From NCBI RefSeq assembly GCF_001634285.1, contig NZ_CP015439.1, positions 124,001 through 188,000 on the forward strand: DNA of 64,000 nt. The letters run 5' to 3'. This DNA comes from Anoxybacillus amylolyticus (GTDB lineage: Bacteria; Bacillota; Bacilli; Bacillales; Anoxybacillaceae). Every line of letters starts with the position of its first letter. The stretch's first letter is position 1. This document shows, piece by piece, positions 11,826 through 51,545 of this stretch. A model generated the notes under the pieces. It did not search any database and was not told the DNA's origin. It saw only the letters and a program-made list of their open reading frames with translations. A program made the position numbers and the translations under genes.

Positions 11826-12146
11826 CGCTTGTTTTGTTAACGCCTCATACGTGATATTCCAATGCGACGCATGCCATACAACAGCCCCGTTTTCAAACAG
11901 AATCGCCTGCGGGGATTCGTGCTTGACACCGAACGTTTCTGCTATATAATTCGAAAGCGGGCGCGCCTCTTGCACGAATAAATAGTACGTCTCCATCTCT
12001 GGATGATCGGTTACAAATGCTTCATATTCCTCAAAAGCCGCGCGGCTAATCGGGCATGTCAAACTATGTTTGATCAGCAAAAAACGCGGTTTTTCAGCTA
12101 CTACTTGCTCGAATTGTTCAATCGTTTCTAATTTTTGTTTCCCCAT
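11820..12146 (-). CDS. ytxJ: Bacillithiol-system redox-active protein YtxJ
   Basis: A 108-residue thioredoxin-fold protein with a monothiol TCPIS motif instead of CxxC, the mark of the YtxJ family linked with bacillithiol redox chemistry. The ATG at 12146 follows GGAGTGAGG. A longer reading from 12173 would run into ytxH and lacks a ribosome site. It is the last gene of ytxGHJ, which in B. subtilis is induced by general stress (SigB) and at sporulation onset (SigH). Confidence 0.93.
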   Translation of the reverse strand: MGKQKLETIEQFEQVVAEKPRFLLIKHSLTCPISRAAFEEYEAFVTDHPEMETYYLFVQEARPLSNYIAETFGVKHESPQAILFENGAVVWHASHWNITYEALTKQAG

Positions 12147-12151
12147 ATGCC

Positions 12152-12517
12152 TCACTCCGTTCCATCGTGCCATTTTTGTTCCGCCTCGTGAAGCGCTGCT
12201 TCCGTTTCTTTCAATAGCTTTTCAATATTTTCTTTGTTTTCTTTGTTGTCCAGCGGAATTGGAATCGAAGTGATTTCCTCTTGTGGTGCTTCTGGTTCGG
12301 TTTTCACTATCGGAACAAATTTCGCAACTTCCTTCGTCTTTTCTTTCGCGATTTCTAACCACTCGTTCGCTGTTTCCTTGAGCGGTTCCAGCGCTTCGTT
12401 TTCATTAAGCGATGTCATCCATTTTTTTCCTTTTTCACTCGTTAAAAAGATGGCAGTAGCAGCGCCAACAACACCACCGACAATCGCTCCGAATAAAAAT
12501 CCATTATTTTTTCCCAT
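12152..12517 (-). CDS. ytxH: YtxH-like general stress protein
   Basis: 121 residues. A glycine-rich N-terminal hydrophobic segment (FLFGAIVGGVVGAATAIFL) anchors it in the membrane. A charged, probably coiled-coil cytoplasmic tail rich in Glu and Lys follows, as in the YtxH/gas-vesicle-protein-like family. Overlaps the ytxG end by 14 bases and is followed 5 bases later by ytxJ, so it is in an operon. The molecular role is unknown. Confidence 0.92.
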   Translation of the reverse strand: MGKNNGFLFGAIVGGVVGAATAIFLTSEKGKKWMTSLNENEALEPLKETANEWLEIAKEKTKEVAKFVPIVKTEPEAPQEEITSIPIPLDNKENKENIEKLLKETEAALHEAEQKWHDGTE

Positions 12518-20706: not shown

Positions 20707-21024
20707 CTACAGCCCGCGAATAAACTGCTCAATTTCTTCTTTCGTTTTTCGGTCTTTGCTGACAAAGCGACCGAGTTCTTTGCCGTTGTCATACGCGATA
20801 AAACTTGGAATACCAAATACGTTTTCATTTTGGCAAACATCTAATAGTTGGTCACGGTCAACATAATAAAACGCATACTCGGAAAATGTTTGTTCGATTT
20901 CCGGTAACACCGGCTCGATAAACCGGCAATCTGGGCACCAATCCGCTGAAAAAACGAAAATAACCTTTTTCGTATTTTTGACCTCTTCATATTGCGCTGC
21001 TGTTTCGATAGTTTTCATCATCAT
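20707..21024 (-). CDS. ytpP: Thioredoxin-like protein YtpP
   Basis: 105-residue thioredoxin fold with active-site WCPDC and the cis-proline segment FGIPSF. Probable thiol-disulfide oxidoreductase. Three consecutive ATG codons (21024, 21021, 21018) open the frame. The IscB element ends just upstream, and no purine-rich ribosome site is visible; the upstream CTCCTCGCCC is element DNA. The insertion may therefore have replaced the native translation signal and promoter of ytpP-ytpQ-ytpR. Confidence 0.92.
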   Translation of the reverse strand: MMMKTIETAAQYEEVKNTKKVIFVFSADWCPDCRFIEPVLPEIEQTFSEYAFYYVDRDQLLDVCQNENVFGIPSFIAYDNGKELGRFVSKDRKTKEEIEQFIRGL

Positions 21025-21025
21025 C

Positions 21026-21079
21026 GGGCGAGGAGACCCCGACTTCTAAGCGAGAGCGAAAGTCGGGGAGGAATCGCCC
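21026..21079 (-). repeat. Subterminal right-end hairpin of the IscB element
   Basis: Inner perfect 9-bp arms CCCCGACTT/AAGTCGGGG (21037-21045, 21060-21068) and outer arms GGGCGA/TCGCCC (21026-21031, 21074-21079). This imperfect palindrome overlaps the iscB stop and resembles the end hairpins recognised by IS200/IS605-type transposases. Confidence 0.7.
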
Positions 21080-22305
21080 TTCCTCCTTTCAATCAATAAT
21101 GTGCTCGCATGCTCCACTTTTTTTAGTTTCTTATAACTTGCCGAAGCATGGATTCTTGTGCCATCTAACAACCGAAGGTCGAAATATCCGCTACTTCTTC
21201 TGCCAAACACAAAACATTCTTGACTATTGTACAGAACTTTGTCAAATAACTGAAACCCTTTGATAAACCGTTCCGCCTTATTGGCTTTCCTTTTTCCGCC
21301 TTTCGATATCGTTGCTTTGTGTAATTGACGGTTATTCTTACGAACAAATTTCAGCAGAAACACAGTGTCGCTCGGTGTGGCAAGAGGATTTTCGCTGATA
21401 CAACGAGCGTCTACCATGTGCGTTTTTGCCAATCCATGCACAATACGAGTGTGTTTTGTGATATATCCATACGTGTGCTTCACATGCGGATACACTTTCT
21501 TTAGTCCATTCCAGATAAACCAACGCATCGCTGTCATGTGGGAAGCGTCTTTCAACGAAGAGAATCTCCGCTGTATTTCGTGTTCTAATCCCTCTCGATG
21601 AATCCTATCGTGGCAAGTTTTGCACAGTGTAATGAGATTACTCGGGGAATCGCCACCCGTCTTTCTGCTTTCCATATGATGGACATTCAGTACAGGGTCT
21701 TTCGATTTTCCTTTACACCATTGGCATGTATGACCGTCTCGATACAATACATACTCCCTCACGTTCCAAAAGCCCAATTGCTCTCCTTGTTGATATGCTG
21801 CACCTTGAATATCAGGATTCTTTATCTTTTGAGTATCAAATTGTGCCACTTCAACGGTGATATGGGTAATCGGAAGCATCGAATGTACCCATTTTACTAA
21901 TTTGATATGACTATCCATTTTATGCTGAATCGAAGGGGCTAACCAGCCGTTTGGCTTCTTACGATTCAAAAATCGGGCTTTTCGATATCTTGTTTTTCGA
22001 TTTCTCCGGCTTCTGCGAAATTGCCTCCTCGTTGCTAACAATTCTTGAATATCCGTACGCAATTGTACTTCTGCTTCTAAAAGCACCTGATTTTTTGTGG
22101 TAGCGGATAGCCCAACATGTTTTGTTCCTGCGTCTACACCTAGAGAAATCGGTTGCTTGTATCCGCTACAACCGTATAGTAGTTGAATCGTGAACGGTGT
22201 TCTTTTTACTACTTTTGCTTTTTTGTTTTTTAACAATATCCTTGCTTTTCTTGGTGAGCACGGCATCAATGGATTGCCATGCTTATTGATCACGTACACG
22301 AACAA
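21046..22305 (-). CDS. iscB: IscB RNA-guided nuclease (Cas9 ancestor family)
   Basis: A 419-residue omega-RNA-guided DNA endonuclease. In order: PLMP domain (GNPLMPCSPRKARILL), RuvC-I aspartate (LGVDAGTKHVGLS), arginine-rich bridge helix (RRQFRRSRRNRKTRYRK), RuvC-II glutamate (HITVEVAQFD), HNH domain with CxxC pairs CQWC and CKTC and catalytic VHHMES, then RuvC-III (THMVDAR). All expected catalytic residues are present, so it looks intact. I choose the TTG at 22305, which follows AAAGGAGGT by seven bases and begins FVYVINKHG; the longer reading from 22377 runs into the omega-RNA. Only one copy is in this window and there is no adjacent tnpA. Confidence 0.92.
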   Translation of the reverse strand: MFVYVINKHGNPLMPCSPRKARILLKNKKAKVVKRTPFTIQLLYGCSGYKQPISLGVDAGTKHVGLSATTKNQVLLEAEVQLRTDIQELLATRRQFRRSRRNRKTRYRKARFLNRKKPNGWLAPSIQHKMDSHIKLVKWVHSMLPITHITVEVAQFDTQKIKNPDIQGAAYQQGEQLGFWNVREYVLYRDGHTCQWCKGKSKDPVLNVHHMESRKTGGDSPSNLITLCKTCHDRIHREGLEHEIQRRFSSLKDASHMTAMRWFIWNGLKKVYPHVKHTYGYITKHTRIVHGLAKTHMVDARCISENPLATPSDTVFLLKFVRKNNRQLHKATISKGGKRKANKAERFIKGFQLFDKVLYNSQECFVFGRRSSGYFDLRLLDGTRIHASASYKKLKKVEHASTLLIERRKGDSSPTFALA

Positions 22306-22554
22306 GGCGTGTACCTCCTTTCTCGGAGTGTTCTTCCTCTTCCCCCATGTTGGAAGGGCTTGTGATGTTGACAGCACCGTCCCTACCCATCAGGACTTTT
22401 AACCATCAACGACAGTGGCTACGAACTAGAGGAGCATTCGTAGGTGTCATGACCCAACCAACGTAGTCCTCGAAAGACTTGGGATAGTCAACTAGGGCTT
22501 TTTACAAGCCCCCACTTCAAAAGCCCAAGGCTTTAAGTGGTGGGTAGTTGACAG
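22306..22554 (-). ncRNA. Omega-RNA (HEARO RNA) scaffold of the IscB element
   Basis: The stretch directly upstream of iscB folds as expected. GTCAACTA (minus strand, at 22554) pairs with TAGTTGAC (22487-22494) to close the first domain; CCACTT/AAGTGG and AAAGCC/GGCTTT form an inner hairpin; CTACGAA/TTCGTAG forms another (22419-22443). The opening GTCAACTACCCACC matches the start of known IscB omega-RNAs. The guide would be the ~16 bases of flanking DNA just 5' of 22554 (22555-22570), inside the DUF84 gene. Confidence 0.85.
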
Positions 22555-23075
22555 CGTGAAGCATTCGTTTTGACAAAAAATTCGTATTGTCCTGCCAATA
22601 GTTTGACGATATGAAAAAACATGTCTGTTCGACTTACATACCCGTTTGTAAAAACGCCGACTGCCCCTTCTTTTTGGCGGATATTCCGCTTCCCAGTGTA
22701 TTCATCCATAACCTCGCCCAACTCTTTGCCGTTCAGCACTTCTTCCGCTACTTCGCAAGGCAAAGGAAAACGGGCGCCACCTGCACATATTACTGTACCG
22801 TTCCGGTCAACAAGTGCTCCCCAATTGCATACCCATAGCGCGCCGTCTATTTCCACGACGCCGCCCTCTAAACCGATGCCGACATCAGCCTGAGCTTTAG
22901 CGCACGCCTGTTTAGCACGGTAGATCGCCCCCATCCGCGTCTCTTCATCGGAAAACGGCTGCGCCGCTACTCCCGAATCGACGGCAATCGGCACGATCTG
23001 ATCGCATTCATCGGCAAACACCGCTTCAACGGCCGCTACTTTCGCTCGGTTCTTCGTCCCTATGGCAATCATCAT
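22533..23075 (-). CDS. DUF84 family NTPase-like protein, 3' end altered by IscB element
   Basis: 180 residues, related to inosine/xanthosine triphosphatases of the YjjX/DUF84 family that hydrolyse damaged purine NTPs (GTKNRAKV substrate motif at the N-terminus, then GIGLEGGV and EGAVGVFT). The ATG at 23075 is spaced correctly from GGGAAGGA; ATG 23084 abuts it. The last residues (CQLPTT) and the stop codon are read from the left end of the IscB element, so the natural C-terminus has been replaced. Likely still functional because the catalytic core is complete. Confidence 0.85.
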   Translation of the reverse strand: MMIAIGTKNRAKVAAVEAVFADECDQIVPIAVDSGVAAQPFSDEETRMGAIYRAKQACAKAQADVGIGLEGGVVEIDGALWVCNWGALVDRNGTVICAGGARFPLPCEVAEEVLNGKELGEVMDEYTGKRNIRQKEGAVGVFTNGYVSRTDMFFHIVKLLAGQYEFFVKTNASRCQLPTT

Positions 23076-23098
23076 GTTTCTCATTCCTTCCCGAATCT

Positions 23099-24175
23099 TT
23101 AACTATTTTGGCGAATCGCCTCAACAGTCGAGCGATCGCATGCTTTGACAAGCTCGATTAAGAGCTGTTTCGCTGCTGCGTAGTCGTCGACGTGAATAAT
23201 CGAAGCATGCGAGTGAATATAGCGGGAACAAATACCAATGACCGCTGAAGGAATTCCGCTGTTGGCGATATGTACGCGCCCTGCGTCTGTTGCTCCCGGA
23301 GAAATAAAAAATTGGTATGGAATGCGATGCGTTTCGGCCATATCTAATACGAACTCGCGCATGCCTCGATGCGTCACCATCGAGCGGTCATAAATGCGAA
23401 CGAGCGCCCCCTTGCCGAGATGGCCAAACTCTTTTTTGCTTCCGGTCATATCATTCGCTGGGCTAGCATCGAGGGCAAAGAAAATATCCGGCTGAATCAA
23501 ATGCGCAGCCGCCTGCGCCCCACGCAATCCGACTTCTTCTTGAACGGTCGCTCCAGAGTATAGCGTATTCGGCAGTGTTTCTCCTTTTAACTCTTTTAAC
23601 AGCTCAATCGCTAACCCACAACCATATCGATTATCCCATGCTTTCGCTAAAATTTTTTTCGCGTTTTCCATCGGGGTAAATGGACAAACTGGCACAATTT
23701 GTTGACCAGGTTTAATCCCCATTCGCTTTGCATCTTCACGATCATCCGCGCCAACGTCAATCAACATATGCTGTATATCCATCGGCTTATTTCGCTGGTC
23801 GTCCGAAAGCAAATGCGGCGGAACAGAACCGATGACTCCTATGATTGGCCCGTGATCGGTGATAATATGGACACGTTGGGCTAACAACACTTGATTCCAC
23901 CAGCCGCCAAGCGCTTGGAAGCGAACCATTCCTTGGTCGGTAATTGCCGTAACCATAAACCCGACCTCATCCATATGTCCTGCTACCATGACAACTGGGT
24001 CGCCTTCTGTACCTAGCTTCACCCCAAAAATACCGCCAAGCCGATCTTGAACGATATCGTCAGCATATTTCTCCAATTCTTTGCGCATAAACTGCCGCAC
24101 CGCATGTTCATTGCCTGGTGCTCCCGGCAATTCCGTTAACGTTTTAAATAACTGAAGCGTCTCCACATTCATCAC
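23099..24175 (-). CDS. ytoP: M42 family metallopeptidase YtoP
   Basis: 358-residue aminopeptidase of the M42 (glutamyl aminopeptidase/endoglucanase-like) family forming large tetrahedral cytosolic particles. Zinc-ligand and catalytic motifs: [47 protein letters not shown]. It precedes the DUF84 gene by 23 bases on the same strand. Confidence 0.95.
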
Positions 24176-24307: not shown

Positions 24308-24604
24308 GTGAACTGGAGAACATTTATCGCCGGTGCGACCGCAGGTTTTGCCGCCGCTTGCTTCGTGCAATCATGGCGAAACAACCAATTGCTTTCATCA
24401 GAAAAAGCGCTCGCACTCGCGAAAAAGGCGTTTCAACACGCTGGGCCAATTAGTGGATCGTGGATTCAAACAACAAAAGAAATGTACGAAAAAGATGGGA
24501 TCATATATCACGTGTATAAAGGTGGCATTTGCCGCGGCGAGGAGCAATATGAGTTTACCATCGACGCCTATACAGGGACGGTTATTGAGAAGAGTAGGTT
24601 GTAA
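24308..24604 (+). CDS. ytzB: PepSY-domain protein YtzB
   Basis: 98 residues. An N-terminal hydrophobic segment (FIAGATAGFAAACFV) probably anchors it to the membrane; the rest is a PepSY domain, a fold linked with protease inhibition. The GTG start follows TAGGAGGGAG. Divergent from ytoP, with a strong terminator. Role unknown. Confidence 0.88.
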   Translation: MNWRTFIAGATAGFAAACFVQSWRNNQLLSSEKALALAKKAFQHAGPISGSWIQTTKEMYEKDGIIYHVYKGGICRGEEQYEFTIDAYTGTVIEKSRL

Positions 24605-24628
24605 AAAAGGGCGTGTCCGCCCTTTTTT
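24603..24628. terminator. Bidirectional terminator between ytzB and ytnP
   Basis: 11-bp stem AAAAAAGGGCG/CGCCCTTTTTT with a TGTC loop. Confidence 0.92.
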
Positions 24629-25469
24629 ATCGTTTTCGCAAAATGCTTTCTACTATTTCTCCGTTGTCGTCCCATTTCAGCGCTCGATAGTACGCATCAT
24701 GATAGAACGTCAGCCATGCTCGTTTTTCAATCGCGTACGGAATCCATTTTTGCTTTTGAGCAATCGACGTCATCGGATAATCGTCAAAGGCGAGCACCCA
24801 CAACACGTTTTGATGCGCATGCGTCGGCATTAAGTCTGCTAAATGAACGGCTGTTTCACCGTTTGATTCAATGACAACGATGGAGTGACCATCGCTATGG
24901 CCGCCGGTATGCACCATTCGAATACCACGAACGACCTCGGTTTCCTCCGTAAATATCACCACTTGATCGACAATCGTTTCCCAGTTTTCTTTCCAATAGG
25001 TGTTGCGCGAGCGAATATTCGGCTGTCGCATTTCGTCCCACTCCACTTGAGAGGTGACAATTCGAGCGTTCGGGAAAGCGGATACGAGCTTGTCCCCGAC
25101 CCATTTCGTCAACCCGCATGCATGATCAAAATGCATATGCGTCATTAAGATAAAATCAATATCATTCGGTGTTAATCCAAGTTTTTGAAGTGACTGCTCC
25201 ACACTGGATTCTTCCGTAACGCCAAAATTACGCTTTTGCTTTTCGGATAATTTCCCATTGCCGATCCCTGATTCAATGAGTATATGTTTTCCATCTATTT
25301 GAAGCAACAGCGGATCGGTTCGCAATTCAATTTGGTTGTTTTCATTGCATGGATATTTTTTCGACCAGAGCGGTTTCGGTACAACGCCAAACATCGCACC
25401 GCCGTCTAAATGTGTCACCCCTCCGTTTAACCACGTAATCGTTACATCGCCTACTTGTAATTGTTCCAT
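24627..25469 (-). CDS. ytnP: Metallo-beta-lactamase-fold lactonase YtnP
   Basis: 280 residues. The MBL motif [10 protein letters not shown] holds the dinuclear zinc ligands, with later [11 protein letters not shown] and ADLMPTHAH. YtnP homologues hydrolyse quorum-signal lactones and degrade streptomycin-production signals. ATG after GAGGTGATGGG. Placed next to trmB and ytmP as in B. subtilis. Confidence 0.93.
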
Positions 25470-25515
25470 TTCCCATCACCTCATTAGTAGTGTACCATCT
25501 CCGTGAATATTTCGA

Positions 25516-25551
25516 AAATAAAAAAAGACTGCCTTTCAACCAAAAAGGCAG
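25516..25551 (-). terminator. trmB terminator
   Basis: 8-bp stem CTGCCTTT/AAAGGCAG (25529-25536, 25544-25551), followed on the minus strand by a T-rich tail. Confidence 0.9.
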
Positions 25552-25554
25552 CCC

Positions 25555-26205
25555 TTACCGTTTTTTCGACGGATATTTCACTTCACAGCGGTAAATCCGA
25601 TTTCCTTTCGCTGCAAATTTTTCTTCATACTCGGTCATAATATTTCCAACAAAATCGCTTCGATGAAGGTCTAAACTCACAAACGTCAATAACAGCCCGT
25701 ATTGGGAAAAGCTGACGAGCGAATATTCAAATAGTCCTTGGTTATCGGTTTTGAAATGGATTTCTCCTTCATCCACTAAAATTTGTTCATAAAGCGCTAA
25801 AAACGAGCGATACGTCAACCGTCGCTTTTCATGCCGTTTTTTGGGCCACGGGTCGGAAAAGTTTAAATAAATACGTGCTACTTCGCCCATAGCAAATACG
25901 TTCGCCAATTCTTTGGCGTTTATGTTCAATAGTTTAAGGTTCGGCAGATTATGCTCGATTAGCTTATCTAGCGCAGAAACGATGACGCTTTCATAAAGCT
26001 CGATGCCGATGTAATTTACATGCGGATTCGCTTTTGCCATCTCGGTAATAAATTTTCCTTTTCCTGTACCAATTTCGATATGGATGGGGTTTTCATTGCC
26101 AAATACCTCATGCCATCGGCCTTTATATTGTTCCGGATTCGGAATAATGTATTGTGGATAAGCGGCGATTTTTTCTTTCGCCCACGGCTTATTTCGTAAA
26201 CGCAT
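25555..26205 (-). CDS. trmB: tRNA (guanine-N7-)-methyltransferase
   Basis: Makes m7G46 in tRNA with S-adenosylmethionine. 216 residues, family length. SAM-binding [11 protein letters not shown], then [16 protein letters not shown], the TrmB signature. The ATG at 26205 follows GGAGGAGAAAC; a longer reading from 26319 would add a spurious hydrophobic leader. Confidence 0.97.
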
Positions 26206-41991: not shown

Positions 41992-42225
41992 AAAAAAACC
42001 TCTCGTCCTTCATCAAAAGGGACGAGAGGTCGAATTTCCCGCGGTACCACCCTCATTAGCGCACAAAAAACGCTCACTCGACTCATTAACGCAGATTCAC
42101 GGCGCATGCTACCTCATTCGCACACGCAACTCCAAGGCGAGTTCGTAAACAAACTTCGGTTGACTCGCACCAGCCGTCAACTCTCTGCAGCCCGTTTTGT
42201 TCACTACTACTCCTTTTCACGGTCA
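41992..42225 (-). promoter_or_regulatory. T-box leader of leuS (uncharged tRNA-Leu sensor)
   Basis: Minus strand. The T-box core GGGTGGTACCGCG (42040-42052) pairs with the tRNA acceptor end. The terminator CCTCTCGTCC/GGACGAGAGG (41999-42008, 42020-42029) with a T-run follows (41992-41998). Stem I is upstream, with a probable specifier CTC (Leu) in GAACTCGCC. Uncharged tRNA-Leu would favour the antiterminator and read-through into leuS. The 5' limit is approximate. Confidence 0.93.
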
Positions 42226-42251
42226 TTTGGGAATATTTTATTATAATCATT

Positions 42252-46510: not shown

Positions 46511-47029
46511 ATGATTTACCCATACAAAGACAAATATCCAAAAATCGCACAATCAGCGTTTATTGCTGATTATGTGACGATTACTGGCGATGTAACAATC
46601 GGCGAGGAAACAAGCATTTGGTTTAATACTGTCATTCGCGGCGATGTCGCACCGACAATCATCGGCAGTCGTGTCAATATTCAAGATAACTCAGTTTTGC
46701 ATCAAAGTCCAAACAATCCGCTCATTATCGAAGACGATGTAACGGTTGGTCATCAAGTCATTTTGCACAGTGCTATCATCCGCAAAAACGCATTGATTGG
46801 CATGGGCGCCATCATCCTTGATGGCGCAGAAATTGGGGAAGGAGCATTTATCGGCGCAGGAAGCCTAGTTCCACCCGGAAAAAAAATTCCGCCGCGCACA
46901 CTCGCGTTCGGGCGTCCAGCAAAAGTAGTACGACAGCTAACCGAAGAAGATGAGCGAGAAATGGCACGCATTCGCCGTGAATATGTCGAAAAAGGACAAT
47001 ATTATAAATCGATTCAACATCCCCAATAA
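46511..47029 (+). CDS. ytoA: Gamma-carbonic-anhydrase-like hexapeptide protein YtoA
   Basis: 172 residues forming a left-handed parallel beta-helix (repeating [LIV]G..... units). Metal-ligand histidines HQSP and VGHQVILHS are conserved as in the gamma-carbonic anhydrase/PaaY group; the activity is not proven. ATG after GGAAGGAAG. Confidence 0.92.
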   Translation: MIYPYKDKYPKIAQSAFIADYVTITGDVTIGEETSIWFNTVIRGDVAPTIIGSRVNIQDNSVLHQSPNNPLIIEDDVTVGHQVILHSAIIRKNALIGMGAIILDGAEIGEGAFIGAGSLVPPGKKIPPRTLAFGRPAKVVRQLTEEDEREMARIRREYVEKGQYYKSIQHPQ

Positions 47030-47120
47030 TGTCCCTTTCGATGAAATATTTTTCGCCTTCTTTATCACCGGCAATATGATAAGATAGGAGCGGGAGTTTG
47101 TAAAATAAGGAGTTAGCGGT

Positions 47121-47963
47121 ATGACAAATGTACTTTTCCTATTAGTTGCCGTTCTCATCGGCGTCGGTATTATTTATTGGCTTAAGTCTCTCTGGAAGGC
47201 TGCGGTTGTTTCTTTTTGCTTGACGATTTTAGTCGTCCCGCTGTTGTTGCAACAACAAATTCAAACCGCTATTAAACAGTGGAAGAATTTGAGTTTTGTA
47301 AAAGAAGAAACCGAGTTGCGTCGAGTCGTATCTTCCTTTGTCGAGGGAGAAATTAAACCATTCGTCCTGCTTGATGTTCCGCTCATTCAACAAATGCCAG
47401 AATTGCCGCGTGGCTGTGAAGTAACAAGCCTTGCGATGCTTCTTCAAGATGCAGGCGTACAAGTCGATAAAACAACGCTTGCCAAACAAATAAAAAAGGA
47501 TCCGACCCCTTTTCAGCGCCGCAACGGCAAAGTATATTTCGGTAATCCACATAACGGATTTGTCGGCGACATGTTTTCGCTCGAGACCCCTGGGCTTGGT
47601 GTATATCATGAGCCGATTGAGGAACTAGCGAAACAATATTTGCCGAATCGAATCGTTAATCTCACTGGTAGAGATTTTACTGAGTTACAAAAATATTTAT
47701 CACAAGGTGCTCCAGTTCTAGTGATTACAAATAGCACGTTTCGAGAACTTCCGGAATCTGCGTTTCGCGAATGGGACACGCCCAATGGCACAATTAAAAT
47801 TACGTACTATGAACATTCTGTTGTTATTACTGGCTATGATCAAGACTATATTTATTTCAACGACCCGCTTTCCGGCCAAAAAAATAAAAAAGCACCGAAA
47901 GACGACTTTTTAGCCGCTTGGGTGCAAATGGGGAAACAAGCAATTACGTATCAACCGAAATAA
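47121..47963 (+). CDS. Membrane-anchored C39-like cysteine peptidase
   Basis: 280 residues. Two N-terminal hydrophobic segments (residues ~2-20 and ~27-42) act as anchor; the extracellular C39_2 domain has cysteine in LPRGCEVTSLAML, histidine in YYEHSVVITGYD and aspartate in FNDPL. Ancestral bacteriocin-type peptidase fold. Substrate unknown. ATG after AAGGAGTTAG; strong terminator follows. Confidence 0.88.
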   Translation: MTNVLFLLVAVLIGVGIIYWLKSLWKAAVVSFCLTILVVPLLLQQQIQTAIKQWKNLSFVKEETELRRVVSSFVEGEIKPFVLLDVPLIQQMPELPRGCEVTSLAMLLQDAGVQVDKTTLAKQIKKDPTPFQRRNGKVYFGNPHNGFVGDMFSLETPGLGVYHEPIEELAKQYLPNRIVNLTGRDFTELQKYLSQGAPVLVITNSTFRELPESAFREWDTPNGTIKITYYEHSVVITGYDQDYIYFNDPLSGQKNKKAPKDDFLAAWVQMGKQAITYQPK

Positions 47964-51371: not shown

Positions 51372-51545
51372 GAAAAAACCTTTCCTTCAACTGCGAGGAA
51401 AGGTGATTGCATTCTTATCGAGCCTTTCACTCTTATCGTTCAAGGGCGTTGCCTTGCCACAGGTTAGCACCATTTCACATGTACAATTGTTGTGACGGTT
51501 GCTGGGTTTCATTGGGCCTGTCCCTCCACCAACTCGGGATAAGAG
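51372..51545 (-). promoter_or_regulatory. SAM-I (S-box) riboswitch and terminator of metK
   Basis: Minus strand aptamer 51430-51545: CTCTTATC opening paired with GATAAGAG, with the conserved GAGGGACAGGCCCAATGAAACCCAGCAACC-type core. The terminator CCTTTCCT/AGGAAAGG (51379-51386, 51396-51403) and a six-T run follow. High SAM would promote termination before metK. Confidence 0.95.

What the first reader, a model, noticed from the sequence alone, without database searches (positions are those of the whole stretch)
21026..22570. Apparently intact IscB with its omega-RNA, guide pointing at its own insertion site
The sequence shows a full IscB (PLMP, RuvC I-III, bridge helix, HNH all present) directly after a HEARO/omega-RNA whose first stem closes at 22554. 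By established IscB biology the guide is the flank just outside this end. That gives ACGAATGCTTCACGCT (22555-22570, minus strand), which belongs to the 3' end of the DUF84 gene, so the RNP would recognise the uninterrupted allele. There is no transposase in the element. A thermophile-derived compact nuclease system would be of interest.
Basis: partly seen in the sequence, partly recalled or inferred. Interest (0 to 1): 0.8.

Follow-up and report, generated by a model that had tools for sequence, protein, structure and literature searches.

The report
Intact IscB element inside ytpP promoter
A small mobile element that encodes an RNA-guided DNA-cutting enzyme (a relative of the ancestor of Cas9) sits apparently intact in a bacterium of the Anoxybacillus group, where it has split a neighbouring gene's promoter; it is a good but ordinary member of a known family, with an unusual insertion history.

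Summary
Window 21019-22552 (minus) is a 1534-bp IscB element: HEARO/omega-RNA (22330-22552, 141.7 bits), IscB of 419 aa from a TTG start (394 bits to guided_IscB, cut-off 175), RuvC/HNH residues conserved, dN/dS 0.16 against A. tepidamans, no Y1 transposase inside. The guide letters are right, but lie at 22553-22568, two bases off.

Uninterrupted alleles of two related genomes (G003, G004) show the left end inside the -10 box of the ytpP promoter and the right end at the ytpP start codon; 33 bp between are missing. Those alleles have ATGAT after the guide site, whereas 26 of 29 relatives' insertions are followed by ATGAA, and differ from the guide at 4 and 2 of 16 bases. So the guide fits the element's own excision product better than these alleles.

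The element lies in a roughly 1-kb tract shared with the G003/G004 lineage, against the host's closest sampled genomes. No Y1 transposase with similar ends was found in 42 loci. Verdict: new member of a known kind.

The parts
21019..22552 (-). whole IscB element, 1534 bp, left end GTCAAC at 22552, right end ...CGATGATG at 21019
   Evidence: same ends as relatives; uninterrupted counterparts for three of four relatives' sites searched
22330..22552 (-). omega-RNA (HEARO)
   Evidence: Rfam RF02033 141.7 bits; 30 of 52 predicted pairs kept through changes on both sides in at least one of 14 sequences, the window's among them
22553..22568 (-). guide, 16 nt of host DNA outside the left end
   Evidence: its role is inferred from established IscB biology
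21046..22305 (-). iscB, TTG start, 419 aa plus stop
21026..21079 (-). right-end hairpin; contains the iscB stop codon
   Evidence: inverted repeat GGGCGA..CCCCGACTT..AAGTCGGGG..TCGCCC read; similar in relatives
21014..21018 (-). ATGAA target/TAM-like motif, also the start codon of ytpP in related genomes
   Evidence: 26 of 29 relatives have ATGAA here
22553..22576 (-). remaining part of the ytpP promoter: -35 TTGTCA, 17-nt spacer, first T of the -10
   Evidence: TTGTCA-N17-TATNAT in 12 of 26 relatives' ytpP loci, G003 and G004 among them (first ten)
20883..23396 (.). recombined tract around the element, of the G003/G004 (J5B_2022 / A. tepidamans) type
   Evidence: 163 informative sites G003/G004-like, 13 G006-like
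22533..23084 (-). DUF84 (NTPase_I-T) gene; its last residues are element sequence
20707..21024 (-). ytpP-like thioredoxin gene; the -10 and ribosome-binding site seen in G003/G004 are missing
   Evidence: the name ytpP is recalled, the family models say thioredoxin

Best explanation
It is a non-autonomous IS200/IS605-type element carrying iscB and its omega-RNA. A read-through host transcript would supply the omega-RNA with the flanking host sequence as guide (inferred). IscB would bind it and cut DNA that matches the guide followed by an ATGAA-like TAM, above all the junction left when a transposase supplied in trans excises the element, so that repair from a sister copy restores it (established knowledge of these families, inferred here). 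In this genome it lies in the ytpP promoter, split after the first base of the -10, inside a short tract shared with the G003/G004 lineage (shown by comparison). Whether the element arrived with that tract or inserted later is open.
For: HEARO and IscB matches; predicted fold best matches solved IscBs, E 5.1e-29; catalytic residues invariant; dN/dS 0.157 with 39 synonymous and 24 non-synonymous changes against A. tepidamans; RNA covariation; uninterrupted counterparts for three of four sites searched; ATGAA after 26 of 29 relatives; ytpP promoter in 12 of 26 relatives' loci; tract.
Against: No expression or cleavage data. No Y1 transposase with similar ends in 42 loci examined (12 own; 30 of 35 matches in nine other genomes), so mobility today is doubtful; some of those loci end at a contig edge and BLAST is weak on short ends. 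No consensus promoter was seen on the minus strand between 22553 and 24208, so omega-RNA expression rests on read-through. The predicted model is of moderate confidence (mean pLDDT 74.9) and superposes on solved IscBs only loosely (TM 0.50-0.62 by query length, rmsd 5-14 among the ten best).
Confidence: 0.8

Rival explanations
1. A stranded relic: IscB is intact only because it is young; no helper transposase remains, the guide is not transcribed, and the element does nothing.
For: No matching transposase found; a single iscB in the genome, and the other HEARO matches there belong to internally deleted or fragmentary elements; host promoter at the left end broken.
Against: dN/dS 0.157 against A. 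tepidamans, though this selection may have acted in another lineage; intact RBS and reading frame.
Confidence: 0.3
2. Domesticated regulator: the RNP binds the ytpP promoter or adjusts expression of ytpP, which now lies behind iscB in the same direction.
For: The guide is the spacer of the ytpP promoter; ytpP lacks the -10 and RBS of its relatives but has dN/dS near 0.05 against G003 and G004.
Against: Catalytic residues are intact; only the own flank matches the guide perfectly in the genome, so there is no second promoter to regulate; of 27 ytpP loci viewed only the window's holds the element.
Confidence: 0.05
3. The missing 33 bp arose before insertion, by slippage between two TATGA repeats, and the element then inserted into a single TATGAA site.
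For: Both edges of the missing stretch are TATGA in G003 and G004; the product gives a proper ATGAA site.
Against: Such a deletion alone would have removed the ytpP ribosome-binding site. A. tepidamans' own copy also has a right flank that differs from the G003 uninterrupted site, which hints at a deletion linked to the element instead; but that flank was found in no other genus genome.
Confidence: 0.4

Closest known systems
IscB/omega-RNA (OMEGA) systems, e.g. OgeuIscB
   Same: PLMP, RuvC, bridge helix, HNH; long guide RNA with the guide at its 5' end; a TAM next to the target (PMC9640706, passages)
   Different: 419 aa, shorter than OgeuIscB (496 aa chain); likely TAM ATGAA where OgeuIscB has NNRR; not tested biochemically
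IscB element of Anoxybacillus tepidamans DSM 16325 (L025)
   Same: 1534 bp, 95.6% DNA identity, same ends
   Different: other insertion site, hence other guide; the ytpP site of that genome is uninterrupted (L059)
IscB elements of Geobacillus zalihae (L027, L038)
   Same: 78% protein identity for L027, same ends, ATGAA
   Different: other sites, with uninterrupted counterparts in other genomes
TnpB elements of the same genome (L184-L190)
   Same: their guide-side 127-138 nt match the guide-side end of a 398-bp element whose first 45 nt (78%) and right-end hairpin (98%) match the window's IscB element
   Different: encode TnpB on the opposite strand (two of seven tested against family models)

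Membership tests
IscB (RNA-guided endonuclease) | match to the curated family model over its cut-off | tested here: met
   NF040563 394.1 bits, cut-off 175
IscB (RNA-guided endonuclease) | PLMP motif, RuvC D/E/H/D and HNH residues | tested here: met
   PLMP at 12-15 in the window protein (M14 and P15 nearly invariant in A3); D58, E152, H209, H210, H232, H296, D299 invariant in 17; aligned with OgeuIscB
IscB (RNA-guided endonuclease) | overall IscB fold | tested here: met
   ten best Foldseek matches all IscB or IsrB, E 5.1e-29 to 6.2e-16, but loose superposition of a moderate model; the C-terminal domains were not checked apart
IscB (RNA-guided endonuclease) | RNA-guided cleavage | not testable with these tools
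   no biochemistry
HEARO / omega-RNA | covariance-model match next to iscB | tested here: met
   141.7 bits, full length
IS200/IS605-type mobile element | defined ends, with uninterrupted sites and no target duplication | tested here: met
   shown for three of four relatives' sites searched (L038/G019, L027/G025, L029/G016); at the window's own site 33 bp are missing
IS200/IS605-type mobile element | Y1 transposase in cis, or in trans with matching ends | tested here: not met
   none in cis; no similar ends in 42 Y1 loci. Membership as an autonomous IS is therefore not claimed
Homing element (guide plus TAM present in uninterrupted alleles) | uninterrupted alleles match guide and TAM | tested here: inconclusive
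   G004 and G003 alleles have 2 and 4 mismatches and ATGAT; no uninterrupted allele of the own species was available

The most novel reading that the evidence does not exclude
The element reached this genome by RNA-guided homing between species: a cut at an uninterrupted allele was repaired from a G003/G004-like copy, carrying about 0.85 kb of flank on one side and about 0.14 kb on the other with it, so that the tract is a natural record of cut-and-copy spread. Against it: the closest genomes G006 and G002 lack the guide site, no sampled genome of the other lineage has the element at this site, and at least two other tracts in the window are not centred on it.
Probability: 0.1. Interest if true: 0.65.

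Novelty: new member of a known kind. Interest (0 to 1): 0.38.

Why it matters
An intact 419-aa IscB from the Anoxybacillus group (heat-loving, by recalled knowledge) with a likely ATGAA TAM is a sound candidate for a compact, heat-stable nuclease. The locus also gives a well-resolved case in which the insertion splits a host promoter and coincides with a recombination tract, so arrival by homing versus passive recombination could be tested with more strains.

Tried and rejected
Plasmid and phage collections: no near match by megablast. Helper transposase: 12 Pfam Y1 hits in the own genome at ten places; nine of the ten have the TTTAAC-type end, one (L010) has not, and none has ends like the element's. 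Trans-acting omega-RNA in the own genome: the second HEARO over the cut-off (L002) belongs to an internally deleted iscB-like element, L003 and L004 score far below the cut-off and look like remnants. Guide matches elsewhere in the own genome: the one 1-mismatch and the one 2-mismatch site are not followed by ATGA; the 3-mismatch sites were not checked. A. tepidamans' right flank was not found in the other six genus genomes, so the parallel with the window's missing 33 bp stays a hint. Literature: searches; for most papers I saw the listing only, and passages of PMC9640706, PMC9755519, PMC13180657, PMC11870625, PMC12477157 and PMC7290912. The paper on selfish spread of these nucleases (Meers 2023) and the one looked up for HEARO (2009) are not held, so anything from them is recalled.

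A chance reading of the tract: four stretches exceed the highest score in 300 shuffles (16) in the 64 kb (150, 65, 46, 19). Of 132 bins of 400 bases with data, 8 favour G003/G004 over G006 by more than 3 points, three of them beside the element; so lying in such a bin by chance is of the order of 0.05: suggestive, no more. The right edge of the tract is mixed. G003 and G004 are themselves unusually alike there (94.6% against 87.3% around), so this allele recombines in the genus anyway, and direction is not proved.

Corrections made on rechecking: the promoter count, first taken from ten loci that I had picked, was redone on all 26 relatives' ytpP loci and is 12 of 26; the A. ayderensis site, at first thought to lack a spanning match, has one in G016.

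Full report
What is there. The minus strand of window 21019-22552 holds a 1534-bp element. Rfam's HEARO model matches 22330-22552 end to end with 141.7 bits against a gathering score of 83. Fourteen aligned RNAs, the window's and 13 relatives', give 52 predicted pairs, 30 of which keep pairing through changes on both sides in at least one sequence; that prediction does not recover the first HEARO stem. Behind it lies an open frame that reads as IscB from a TTG codon at 22305, eight bases after AGGAGG, 419 residues to a stop at 21046-21048. It scores 394.1 bits with NCBI's guided_IscB model, cut-off 175, and phmmer finds OgeuIscB, HfmIscB, TbaIscB and others among solved structures. In 17 aligned homologues D58, E152, H209, H210, H232, H296 and D299 never vary. 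The predicted model (mean pLDDT 74.9) has IscB or IsrB structures as its ten best Foldseek matches, though with loose superposition. Against the A. tepidamans copy there are 39 synonymous and 24 non-synonymous changes, dN/dS 0.157.

Coordinates. The left end is 22552, not 22554; the 16-nt flank is 22553-22568; the right flank begins at 21018.

Ends and target motif. I took 32 related loci from named genomes. Three were set aside because the right end is off the contig or unclear (L026, L042, L047). Of the other 29, 26 are followed by ATGAA, two by ATGGA, and one (L033) by GTGATAAA, which may be read as GTGAT or ATAAA; this was read by eye. Six of the 29 come from one genome, A. pushchinoensis K1. 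I joined the flanks of four occupied sites and searched 41 family genomes. Three have counterparts that run through the join at ATGAA: a G. zalihae site (L038) in G019, another (L027) in G025 with a one-base difference in the flank, and the A. ayderensis site (L029) in G016, 83% over 131 bases. G027, also a counterpart for L027, lacks a few bases there. The A. tepidamans site (L025) has a counterpart in G003 on the left only; its right flank differs.

The window's own site. After the guide region they read ATGATTAGG, then a purine-rich stretch with AAGGGG, then ATGAAAAC, the ytpP start. In the window the left flank stops at the first site and the right flank starts at the second; 33 bp between them are missing. 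A TTGTCA-N17-TATNAT promoter precedes ytpP at this place in 12 of 26 relatives' loci, G003 and G004 among them, and not in the other 14, which include G006, G002, G005 and G001. The element's left end falls after the first base of that -10. The guide is thus the promoter's spacer. ytpP lacks the -10 and ribosome-binding site of G003 and G004, though its 103 compared codons keep dN/dS near 0.05 against both. No consensus promoter lies between 22553 and 24208 on the minus strand; read-through from the M42 peptidase-DUF84 unit is my inference for how the guide could be transcribed.

What the guide can see. G004 differs from the guide at 2 of 16 bases and G003 at 4 of 16, and both have ATGAT where ATGAA is the rule. 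For OgeuIscB, mismatches in the 14 TAM-proximal positions abolish cleavage (PMC9640706, passages). In the own genome only the element's own flank matches perfectly; 32 places match within three mismatches against 26 for the control. The guide therefore fits the excision product CACGCT|ATGAAAAC, as the retention model for these nucleases requires (PMC11870625 and PMC12477157, passages, mostly about TnpB), but not well the sampled uninterrupted alleles.

History. Over the surrounding 8 kb the host is closest to G006 and G002 (88.7 and 88.2%) and farther from G003 and G004 (82.7 and 80.6%). In 844 bp left of the element this turns round: 96.3 and 92.3% to G003 and G004, about 73% to G006 and G002. 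On the right a further 136 bp are 93% like G003 and G004, with a mixed edge. Sites at which G003 and G004 agree against G006 are 163 G003/G004-like to 13 G006-like between 20883 and 23396. The element itself is 95.6% identical to A. tepidamans' and 98-99% to five pieces in G003, which has no complete assembled copy. A protein search found no iscB in G002 and only a weak 59-residue match in G006. So the element sits in a recombined tract of the lineage that carries it. Other tracts exist in the window (24569-25649 and 47021-47378, and a weaker one at 11955-12437), so the coincidence is suggestive, with a chance of the order of 0.05.

Mobility. The element has no transposase. Among 42 Y1 loci (12 own, and 30 of 35 matches in nine other genomes) none has ends like it; two of the nine genomes, G021 and G022, have no Y1 match at all although they hold related elements. 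This fits the report that few HEARO nucleases sit beside TnpA (PMC9755519, passage).

Verdict. A new, apparently functional member of a known kind, in an instructive place.

Noticed in passing
L140:1174-1571, L131:1174-1571, L143:1174-1571 (own genome C1, C3, C1); also L132, L141, L151, L152: A 398-bp non-coding element whose first 45 nt (78%) and right-end hairpin (98%) match the window's IscB element; seven of seven copies viewed are followed by ATGAA. The inner part is conserved, shows some covariation, matches no Rfam family up to E 0.5 in the five copies searched, and matches to it, full or partial, occur in 29 of 41 family genomes. Its first 127-146 nt match the guide-side end of TnpB elements, so it may be a stand-alone omega-RNA element served by TnpB in trans.
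   Followed up: partly
L184-L190 (own genome, seven places): Open frames of 376-440 codons on the strand opposite to these shared ends; the two tested score over the guided_TnpB cut-off. IscB and TnpB elements seem to share end architecture, read from opposite strands.
   Followed up: partly
L002:1501-2100: Second HEARO over the cut-off (121.5 bits) in the own genome, leading into what reads as an internally deleted iscB of another subfamily, between a response-regulator gene and the next gene (subfamily judged by eye).
   Followed up: partly
L117 (G022:C1:3310500-3314200): An IscB element that itself contains a second, nested iscB (283.3 bits to guided_IscB) with a weak HEARO match of 37.2 bits, at a site that is uninterrupted in other family genomes.
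   Followed up: partly
L136/L147 (own genome C1:2468740-2468873), L142/L146 (G003:C113:79346-79490): Very short elements of about 134 and 145 bp made of little more than the two ends.
   Followed up: no
window 24569-25649 and 47021-47378: Further tracts resembling G003/G004 more than G006 (72 to 7 and 58 to 12 informative sites); I did not look for elements there.
   Followed up: no
window 42015-42229 (-) and 51430-51545 (-): T-box leader (135.2 bits) and SAM riboswitch (70.4 bits).
   Followed up: no
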